From Mesoterricola silvestris (lineage in GTDB: Bacteria > Acidobacteriota > Holophagae > Holophagales > Holophagaceae), in contig NZ_AP027080.1 in NCBI RefSeq assembly GCF_030295405.1, positions 434,001 through 498,000 of the forward strand: a DNA stretch of 64,000 bases, given 5' to 3'. This document shows, in pieces, positions 23,107-51,228 of the stretch. The position numbers and the translations under genes are program-made. Each line of letters begins with the position of its first letter. Position 1 is the stretch's first letter. The notes beneath the pieces are model-generated. The model was not told the DNA's origin, ran no database searches, and was given only the letters and a program-made list of their open reading frames with translations.

Positions 23107-23175
23107 GCTTTCCGTTGCCGCGGGCCATGGCCCGCGGCAACGAACCGGGCCCAATGTCCGGGACCCGCACGAATC
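23107..23175 (-). repeat. intergenic structured repeat, type 2, copy D
   Basis: Read on the minus strand, this stretch matches 50590-50648: CGGGTCCCGGACATT then CCCGGTTCGTTG, a hairpin, then CAACGGAA. The hairpin is a perfect 30-base palindrome (23113-23142) with a CCATGG centre. Flanks are conserved between copies while the stem sequence differs. It lies between two convergent genes and may also stop transcription from both sides. Confidence 0.6.
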
Positions 23176-40774: not shown

Positions 40775-41024
40775 CTGCGTTTCCGTCCGTGTCCCGGACC
40801 TTCGCCCCGGTCCGTTGGCGCCGACGTTGATTGGTCGGGCCGGCTTCCCGCAGCTTCCGCCACCGTCGTCCATGGATCACGGCAAGCGCCAGCAGCAGCT
40901 CGCTGCTGCGCAAGCGCTACCGATGGGTCGGCGCATGGTGTCGGGACCCGGTTGGGTCGCGCCCCCCTGCCGGAACCCGGCTGAAAACCACCGCAGCCCC
41001 CGGCAGGGCAAGCCTGTCCGGGCC
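40775..41024 (+). repeat. intergenic structured repeat, copy A (type 2 followed by type 1)
   Basis: The left part (about 40787-40838) matches the type 2 flank: GTCCCGGACCTTCGCCCCGG then TCCGTTGGCGCCGACG. The right part (40874-41024) is a type 1 copy: GGATCACGGCAAGCGC, a GCAGCAG-CTCG-CTGCTGC hairpin, GATGGGTCGGCGC, GTTGGGTCGCG, a CCCCCGGCAGGG block and TGTCCGGGCC. It fills the gap between two convergent genes. See copies at 23107, 44776, 45043 and 50590. Confidence 0.65.
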
Positions 41025-41029
41025 CGGTC

Positions 41030-44668: not shown

Positions 44669-44775
44669 GGGACTCCCTCGAAGACACTCCATCCAGATTC
44701 CTGAAACTCCTCCGCCGACACAAGGAAAAGGTGCGGGCTCAGGGGTCGGCCCGTGGAGTTTCCGGTCCCCCCAAT

Positions 44776-44915
44776 CAGCCCCTGCCGGGGGCCGCACGTT
44801 TATTCGGCCGGCTTCCCACCTGCGCCGCGACCCACCGGGGTCCCGACCCGAAGCCCCGACCCACCGGTAGCGCATTCGCAGCAGCAAGCTGCTGCGAATT
44901 CGCTGCCCGTGATCC
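44776..44915 (-). repeat. intergenic structured repeat, type 1, copy B1
   Basis: Read on the minus strand: GGATCACGGGCAGCG, a hairpin with GCAGCAG-CTTG-CTGCTGC core and AATTCGC/GCGAATG outer arms, GCGCTACCGGTGGGTCGG, a second GGTGGGTCGC, GGTGGGAAGCCGGCCGAATA and a final CCCCCGGCAGGGGCTG. It closely matches copy B2 in opposite orientation, so the two could form a long stem around the 127-base spacer. Confidence 0.7.
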
Positions 44916-45042
44916 CGTGACAGCGGGGCTCGGGAACGTGGGCGAAGTGGGCAACGGTGCACAGCCCAAGGCATGACCCCGGTGGTCTTCCGGCCGCGCG
45001 ATGAACAGGCGCACCCCCCGTCCCCAATCACCCATCGTCAAC

Positions 45043-45186
45043 GGATCACGGCAAGCGCAATCGCAGCAGCTTGCTGCTGCGATTGCGCTACCGGTGGGTC
45101 GGCGCAAGCGGTCGGAACCCCTGTGGGTCGCAACCTCGGTGGGAAGCCGGCCGAATAAACCCGCGGCCCCCGGCAGGGGCTGCTTG
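45043..45186 (+). repeat. intergenic structured repeat, type 1, copy B2
   Basis: GGATCACGGCAAGCGCAATC, hairpin core GCAGCAG-CTTG-CTGCTGC with outer arms GCGCAATC/GATTGCGC, GCTACCGGTGGGTCGGCGC, GTGGGTCGCAACC, CGGTGGGAAGCCGGCCGAAT and CCCCCGGCAGGGGCTGCTTG. The stem outside the core differs from B1, A and C but pairs perfectly. It ends 17 bases before the stop of the ccsA-like gene and could form the 3' structure of that transcript. Confidence 0.7.
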
Positions 45187-45202
45187 ACAGGATGGACGTT
45201 CG

Positions 45203-50589: not shown

Positions 50590-50648
50590 CGTACGGGTTC
50601 CGGACGTTCGCCCCGGTTCGTTGGCGCAGGCAAGCTGCGCCAACGGAA
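50590..50648 (+). repeat. intergenic structured repeat, type 2, copy C5
   Basis: GTACGGGTTCCGGACGTTCG, CCCCGGTTCG, then a perfect 11-base-pair hairpin CGTTGGCGCAG-GCAAG-CTGCGCCAACG (50619-50645) and GAAGG. It matches the minus strand of 23107-23175 in both flanks while the stem differs. The loop GCAAG is the complement of the CTTGC loop of the type 1 hairpin at 50901, 256 bases further on. Confidence 0.65.
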
Positions 50649-50892
50649 GGGCCCCGTCCGTGGACTGCGGAGGCGTGCTGCCGCATTCGTCCTCCGTTGG
50701 AGGGTGGGGGATTCACGATCCTGGGGCCCCCCGGGAGGGCCTAGGCCTCAAGGGCACGCTTCGAGTGATCGGGGGGAAGGGCGGTTGGCGCCGACGCTGA
50801 GTTGTGTCGATGGCTCGAAAAACCAGGAATGGGGCTCCATTCGTCCTCGGCGCATTCCCGCCAAAACACCGGAACGGCGATCCCTGTCCGAG

Positions 50893-51033
50893 AAACGGCA
50901 AGTGCTCGCAGCTTGCCTGCGAGCACTCACGGTGGGTCGGCGCCTTCGACCGGAACACAGGTGGGTCGGGGTCCCGCCCGATAGCCCCATTCAAAACCCC
51001 CGCGGCCCCCGGCAGGGACTGCTTGTCCGGGCC
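50893..51033 (+). repeat. intergenic structured repeat, type 1, copy C
   Basis: ACGGCA, then a perfect hairpin AGTGCTCGCAG-CTTGC-CTGCGAGCACT (50901-50927), CGGTGGGTCGGCGCC, GGTGGGTCGGGG, and the end block GCGGCCCCCGGCAGGGACTG followed by CTTGTCCGGGCC. The stem shares only its inner GCAG/CTGC with copies A, B1 and B2, but pairs fully. Lies about 270 bases before the respiratory operon. Confidence 0.7.
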
Positions 51034-51228
51034 GAACGATCCAGACGTCGACCCCCCCCATGGGACGGACCTCGAGGCGCACGATTTCCCTCGGCGAATT
51101 AAGGAAATCCAGTCGTAAATATCCACCCAGAATTCGACTGAAAATGAGTCTCGCCAGCAGAATTGCGTGACAAATTCGAACGATCCGAAGGTAAATTTTT
51201 GATTTTTATTCATTCATTTAATTAGGCT

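What the first reader, a model, noticed from the sequence alone, without database searches (positions are those of the whole stretch)
44776..45186. Type 1 family of structured intergenic repeats, copies at 40.9, 44.8, 45.1 and 50.9 kb
Four roughly 140-base elements share the order GGATCACGGCAAG - hairpin - two GGTGGGTCG-like blocks (a third, GGTGGGAAGCCGGC, in B1 and B2) - CCCCCGGCAGGG. All lie in gaps between genes, mostly at 3' ends. Multi-copy, strongly structured elements in only 64 kb suggest a genome-wide family: a REP/BIME-like mobile element or a recurrent RNA structure. No helper transposase lies in this window. I know of no described family with this order of blocks.
Basis: seen in the sequence. 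Interest (0 to 1): 0.72.

Follow-up and report, generated by a model that had tools for sequence, protein, structure and literature searches.

The report
Jumping DNA that duplicates terminator hairpins
The repeats are the two mirror-image ends of small, gene-less transposons (MITEs) that land on DNA hairpins such as transcription terminators and, unusually, copy the whole hairpin to both sides, so neighbouring genes can each keep one.

Summary
In detail: four copies lie where stated. The interpretation changes. Each copy is one END of a longer inverted-repeat unit. A covariance model finds about 80 copies in this 5-Mb genome; sixty form 30 divergent pairs, and 44761-45197 is one such unit. Copies occur only in the same genus. 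Two complete congeners have none, also not at the window's own locus, so it is a mobile insertion. A congener (Holophagaceae MAG bog_363) carries 77 exact copies of the tip CTGCAGTTTGGA. Of 83 end junctions, 74 abut a near-perfect 23-42-nt palindrome (shuffled control 0.3%) of many unrelated sequences. The target-site duplication appears to be the whole palindrome: 31 bp at one unit of this genome, an exact 29-bp direct repeat around a related element; at another unit one terminator in congeners has become two. The likely mobiliser is an IS701-like DDE transposase: remnants sit inside several units, and full-length relatives have similar tips beside hairpins. Known IS701 elements duplicate 4 bp; IS1272 targets hairpins but deletes them; hairpin duplication was proposed on paper in 2017. 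I found no report of it (open-access library only). This is a MITE family with an unusual, structure-defined target duplication, not REP/RAYT and not primarily an RNA.

The parts
44761..45197 (.). one complete non-autonomous unit (MITE): left end, spacer, inverted right end; the outermost ~18 nt (tips) are decayed
   Evidence: divergent pair found by model R1; 150-nt inverted repeat; locus without the unit in G001 and G004
44761..44921 (-). left end of the unit (copy B1)
   Evidence: R1 match, 141.2 bits
44922..45036 (.). 115-bp spacer without a gene
45037..45197 (+). right end of the unit (copy B2), best match in the genome
   Evidence: R1 match, 159.9 bits
44869..44904 (-). subterminal palindrome of the left end
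   Evidence: sequence; covarying helices 1-3
45054..45089 (+). subterminal palindrome of the right end, AGCGCAATCGCAGCAGCTTGCTGCTGCGATTGCGCT
   Evidence: sequence; covarying helices 1-3
45093..45151 (+). GGTGGGTCG-like blocks (45093-45101, 45122-45130, 45138-45151), candidate transposase-binding repeats
   Evidence: invariant columns in ten copies; binding role inferred
45167..45178 (+). conserved outer block CCCCCGGCAGGG
40868..41027 (+). copy A, a right end; its left half is not type 1
   Evidence: R1 match, 154.4 bits
50884..51036 (+). copy C, a right end; its left half is not type 1
   Evidence: R1 match, 125.7 bits

Best explanation
The type 1 repeats are the ~160-bp ends of a family of non-autonomous DDE transposons (MITEs). 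Each unit is end - short spacer - inverted end. An IS701-like transposase, not found in this genome today, binds the repeated GGTGGGTCG/GGAACC blocks and cuts at the tip (CTGCAGTTTGGAC in fresh copies). It inserts the unit into palindromic DNA: transcription terminators and REP-like hairpins. It joins the two strands at the two 5' feet of the palindrome, most simply on an extruded cruciform where those feet are close together; gap repair then copies the palindrome, so the target-site duplication is the hairpin plus about 1 nt and its length (23-42 bp) is set by the hairpin. A terminator between convergent genes becomes two terminators flanking the element, which would make insertion nearly harmless. 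Shown by computation: paired structure, presence/absence between relatives, palindromic targets, whole-palindrome duplication at several loci, IS701-like remnants inside sister units. Inferred: binding sites, cruciform recognition, harmlessness, and that this transposase moved the window's copies.
For: About 80 copies, 60 of them in 30 divergent pairs. Absent from two complete congeners and, at the window locus (ccsA - S9 peptidase), both lack the unit. In G003 74 of 83 end boundaries abut a palindrome within 0-2 nt versus 0.3% of shuffles, and 22 boundary pairs match as duplications of 26-39 bp. Single-contig duplications: 29 bp exact in G072, 31 bp with 2 mismatches at 2206733, 32 bp at 4862047, 23 bp with 1 mismatch in G278 L249. 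Single terminator in G004 and G003 where this genome has hairpin - unit - hairpin at 3518196. IS701-like remnants inside three G003 units and full-length relatives with similar tips abutting hairpins. 3'-end bias.
Against: No intact autonomous element with these exact ends was found. One G003 end adjoins a Tn3 transposase fragment, across an assembly gap. In this genome only 4 of 30 units keep recognisable hairpins on both sides, two of them better as inverted than direct copies. In G003 the units are split over contigs, and many palindromes belong to repeat families, so boundary pairs there are not proven to be two sides of one insertion. L256 sits between two different hairpins. G002 and G005 also have an end at the window locus although G004, which is closer to G000 than G002 there, lacks it, so repeated insertion or loss must be assumed.
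Confidence: 0.75

Rival explanations
1. The units insert between hairpins that were already there in tandem, or at the edge of a hairpin, without duplicating it.
For: Some targets are repeat-family hairpins that occur more than once in a row, and L256 sits between two different hairpins.
Against: Congeners have one hairpin at the 3518196 locus. The 29-bp exact, 31-bp and 23-bp repeats are locus-specific and start at the tips. L184/L188 and L118/L209 also match in the nucleotide beyond the palindrome.
Confidence: 0.12
2. REP/BIME-like elements moved by a RAYT (Y1 HUH) transposase.
For: Intergenic, palindromic, high copy number, inverted pairs.
Against: Ends of ~160 bp with a fixed tip, duplication of the target, and DDE-transposase remnants inside sister units. 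IS200/IS605-type elements do not duplicate their target (general knowledge). Genome-wide search for a RAYT gene was not done.
Confidence: 0.04
3. A cis-acting RNA or terminator element of gene 3' ends.
For: 3'-end location and real covariation of the 5' hairpin.
Against: Missing at orthologous loci of close relatives; near-identical copies with sharp ends in unrelated contexts in G003; the blocks show no supported pairing outside the hairpin; copies stand as inverted pairs, and the window's left end lies upstream of the S9 peptidase gene.
Confidence: 0.04
4. Tn3-derived miniature elements (TIMEs) moved by a Tn3-family TnpA.
For: A Tn3 TnpA fragment lies 170 bp inside one G003 end, and this genome has a 1122-aa Tn3 frame.
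Against: An assembly gap lies at that junction. The Tn3 gene of this genome is not flanked by these ends. Duplications of 23-42 bp do not fit the 5 bp of Tn3 (general knowledge).
Confidence: 0.06

Closest known systems
IS1272 / TnSha1 (IS1182 family) of staphylococci (PMC5678879, PMC4923244)
   Same: Targets are inverted repeats or terminator hairpins of no common sequence; insertion downstream of genes; explained by extruded stem-loops.
   Different: IS1272 replaces or deletes the hairpin and makes no duplication; here the hairpin is duplicated, the outcome drawn as pathway b of Fig. 13 in PMC5678879. Transposase group differs (IS701-like here).
IS701 family (PMC2266710)
   Same: The transposase remnants and full-length relatives are closest to NCBIfam IS701 models.
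   Different: IS701 elements duplicate exactly 4 bp; this group duplicates palindromes of 23-42 bp; best full-length relatives score just under the curated cut-off.
IS1549 and IS1634 (PMC2266710)
   Same: Long duplications of variable length.
   Different: No hairpin rule or model reported there; another IS4-related family.
REP/BIME/REPIN with RAYT
   Same: Intergenic palindromic repeats in inverted pairs; in G003 REP-like palindromes are the targets.
   Different: Size, tips, target duplication and transposase class.

Membership tests
MITE (non-autonomous DDE transposon) | terminal inverted repeats and no transposase gene | tested here: met
   30 divergent pairs, spacers 51-562 bp
MITE (non-autonomous DDE transposon) | mobility: presence/absence at orthologous loci | tested here: met
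MITE (non-autonomous DDE transposon) | target-site duplication | tested here: met
   whole palindrome; eroded at most units of this genome
MITE (non-autonomous DDE transposon) | ends shared with an autonomous element | tested here: inconclusive
   IS701-like remnants between the same ends in G003; no intact one found
IS701 family | IS701-type DDE transposase | tested here: inconclusive
   fragments and relatives hit NF049999 below its cut-off, 162 vs 170 bits at best
IS701 family | target duplication of exactly 4 bp | tested here: not met
   23-42 bp palindromes; rule from PMC2266710
IS1182/IS1272 group | hairpin target | tested here: met
   74 of 83 boundaries
IS1182/IS1272 group | hairpin replaced, no duplication | tested here: not met
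   hairpin present on both sides
IS1182/IS1272 group | IS1182-type transposase | tested here: not met
   no IS1182 model among the NCBIfam hits; best are IS701 models
REP/BIME with RAYT | Y1 HUH transposase in the genome | not tested
REP/BIME with RAYT | 20-40-bp palindrome as the repeated unit | tested here: not met
   ends of ~160 bp, units of 343-811 bp
Tn3-derived TIME | 5-bp duplication | tested here: not met
   (5-bp rule from general knowledge)

The most novel reading that the evidence does not exclude
A group of IS701-like transposases and their MITEs recognises DNA hairpins or cruciforms by shape and attacks the 5' feet of both stem-loops, so the target duplication is the hairpin itself and its length follows the target. 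This would be a natural realisation of a pathway so far only drawn in a model (PMC5678879), and a built-in way of sparing genes by giving both neighbours a terminator.
Probability: 0.55. Interest if true: 0.76.

Novelty: new variant of a known kind. Interest (0 to 1): 0.62.

Why it matters
Transposases normally cut target DNA at a fixed stagger. Here the stagger appears to be set by the palindrome, which points to recognition of extruded hairpins or cruciforms in living cells and gives dozens of natural targets on which to test it. It may bear on the long variable duplications of IS1549 and IS1634, for which a 2008 review knew no model (PMC2266710). It also shows how a mobile element could reach high copy number with little harm, by landing on terminators and duplicating them, and it explains a class of 3'-end repeats in this Holophagaceae genus.

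Tried and rejected
Known RNA family: no Rfam match at gathering score, only chance-level hits up to E=5. One large folded RNA: the pairing of the GGTCGG blocks with CCGGC has no two-sided change; only the 5' hairpin is supported. The 5-kb pair at 3095966/3100934 as an autonomous transposon: it holds ordinary genes. Gene-end RNA elements: rejected by empty sites. Tn3 as parent: see rivals. IS701-like genes in other Holophagaceae genera as sources of these ends: only G072 keeps both ends and the duplication; for G047, G015, G083 and G068 I could not find the ends. Two close relatives of L256 were sought in its order without new copies; plasmid records hold only distant relatives, about 25% identity.

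Full report
CHECK OF THE OBSERVATION. The four copies align over their whole length with the stated block order. A covariance model of ten copies (R1) finds 87 matches at E<=0.001 in the window's genome (4,994,678 bp in one contig, window at 434001-498000); the best is 5e-37. A few are reverse-strand hits to the symmetric hairpin alone, so about 80 copies is a fair count. Rfam has no matching family.

WHAT THE UNIT IS. Sixty copies form 30 divergent pairs (minus then plus, outer block CCGGCAGGG facing out) with spacers of 51-562 bp and units of 343-811 bp. The window's 44761-44921 (-) and 45037-45197 (+) are one such unit and also the best inverted repeat of the window (150 nt, 85% complementary). 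So the 140-base 'element' is one end of a longer unit. Copies A (40868-41027) and C (50884-51036) are right ends whose left halves are not type 1; both have a second shared sequence to their left.

MOBILITY. The model finds copies in four of the six genomes of the genus and in none of 25 genomes of other genera of the family and class; two complete congeners (G001, G004) have none. At the window's locus the order ccsA - S9 peptidase is kept in G001 and G004 without the unit, and G004 has a single terminator hairpin there; G002 and G005 have an element end shortly after the same ccsA stop codon, where their contigs break. At 3518196-3518569 convergent nitroreductase and dihydroorotate-dehydrogenase-like genes (names from my reading of the translations) flank one hairpin in G004 (AAAAGGGCCGGCGATGCCGGCCCTTTT) and one in G003, whereas in the window's genome AAAGGGCCGGC...GCCGGCCCTTT (one position differs in the left copy) stands on both sides of the unit.

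TARGET. G003 (Holophagaceae MAG bog_363, identified through) holds many near-identical copies, most at contig ends. They define the tip ...TCCAAACTGCAG, found 77 times with no match of the reversed control pattern. Of 83 non-redundant boundaries (three to five of them from G005), 74 are followed within 0-2 nt by a near-perfect palindrome of about 23-42 nt; 0.3% of shuffled flanks pass the same test. The palindromes include REP-like families (AGCAGCCGTAACGGAGC..., ACTCCATGTCCGGGC...) and unrelated single hairpins (TAAAAAGGGACCGCGCC...GGCGCGGTCCCTTTTTA), so shape rather than sequence is what they share.

DUPLICATION OF THE TARGET. If a palindrome is duplicated, the outward sequence on one side must equal the reverse complement of the other side. 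In G003, 22 boundary pairs match exactly over 26-39 bp; L184/L188 (39 bp) and L118/L209 (28 bp) match also in the nucleotide just outside the palindrome. Because contigs break inside the units and some palindromes are repeat families, I rely more on single-contig cases: G072, an IS701-like remnant with tips CTGGACTTGTTCC, flanked by the exact direct repeat GCAGAAGCTCGGCGGAGCCGAGCTTCTGC, whose asymmetric loop shows direct orientation; this genome's units 2206733 (31 bp, 2 mismatches) and 4862047 (32 bp); and L249 of G278 (23 bp, 1 mismatch). Among the 30 units here only four keep hairpins recognisable on both sides (alignment scores 28-52; cross-locus maximum 28), two of them better as inverted than as direct copies. 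I take this as erosion of old insertions, which is an inference.

THE TRANSPOSASE. In G003 three units contain pieces of an IS701-like DDE transposase beside the ends; one of them (L111) also keeps a short frame with weak HARE-HTH similarity. The window's genome has no such gene. Full-length relatives in G278 (L249, L256) hit NCBIfam transpos_IS701_3 just below the curated cut-off (162 versus 170 bits), have tips CTCAAGTTTTTCG and CTGGAGTTTGGCC, and abut hairpins at both ends. The G003 tip CTGCAGTTTGGACTTTTCG resembles the L256 tip CTGGAGTTTGGCCATTTCG. More distant relatives show no palindrome (L252-L254) or a short CTAAG/CTTAG repeat (L259, L260). One G003 end adjoins a Tn3 transposase fragment across an assembly gap; I treat it as a rival lead.

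ANATOMY AND MECHANISM. Each end has a subterminal palindrome that covaries across 79 distinct copies (helices 1-3: two-sided changes in 12 of 14 pairs; no shuffle of the whole structure reaches the observed score; the alignment was fitted to the model, which leans towards the structure). Then follow two or three GGTGGGTCG/GGAACC blocks of fixed sequence, an outer CCGGCAGGG block and the tip. I infer that the blocks bind the transposase and that the subterminal palindrome is kept as a structure, perhaps as a terminator against read-through or as part of the synaptic complex. The duplication fits joining of the two 3' ends at the 5' feet of both stem-loops of an extruded cruciform followed by gap repair. 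Wan et al. (PMC5678879, Fig. 13, pathway b) drew this as a possible outcome, while their own element IS1272 removes the hairpin (also PMC4923244). Shown here: palindromic targets and whole-palindrome duplication. Inferred: cruciform recognition.

GENE CONTEXT. With a rough GC3-based gene caller, 16 of 26 classifiable units lie between convergent genes, 9 between tandem and 1 between divergent genes. This fits terminators as targets and needs no regulatory role.

KNOWN OR NEW. As a MITE family it is a new member of a common kind. The hairpin duplication sets it apart: IS701 elements duplicate 4 bp and IS1549/IS1634 make long duplications without a stated rule (PMC2266710); IS1272 deletes hairpins. 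Literature searches covered open-access papers only, so an earlier description elsewhere, for example among IS1182-family members said to target palindromes, cannot be excluded.

Noticed in passing
window 40784-40821, 50590-50627, 23130-23172: A second repeat (GCGCCAACGAACCGGGGCGAACGTCCGGAACCCGTACGA-like, next to a hairpin) lies left of copies A and C and once more at 23.1 kb; unrelated in sequence to type 1, possibly the other end of A and C or a second MITE family.
   Followed up: partly
L256:2785-3687 (-): The IS701-like element of G278 carries a DruA-domain protein (PF14236, E 6e-46) next to the transposase; DruA is known from the Druantia anti-phage system.
   Followed up: partly
L131:264-1964 (-) (G003:C155); L149:3124-6490 (-) (G000:2737127 region): Tn3-family TnpA: a fragment 170 bp inside a type 1 end in G003 across an N gap, and a 1122-aa frame in the window's genome without type 1 ends.
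   Followed up: partly
G003 contig ends, e.g. L081, L098, L117: REP-like palindrome families (AGCAGCCGTAACGGAGC..., ACTCCATGTCCGGGC..., GGGATGCAACGCATGCGTTGCATCCC) serve as targets; their own nature was not studied.
   Followed up: no
ccsA 3' end: window 45206, G002:C111, G005:C210: Element ends occur at the same ccsA 3' end in three genomes but not in G001 and G004, which suggests an insertion hot spot or loss.
   Followed up: partly
L111:1113-1454 (+) and upstream of the transposase in L251: Small HARE-HTH-like frame in front of the transposase in one G003 unit, and a similar-looking frame in G305; perhaps an accessory protein of the autonomous element.
   Followed up: partly
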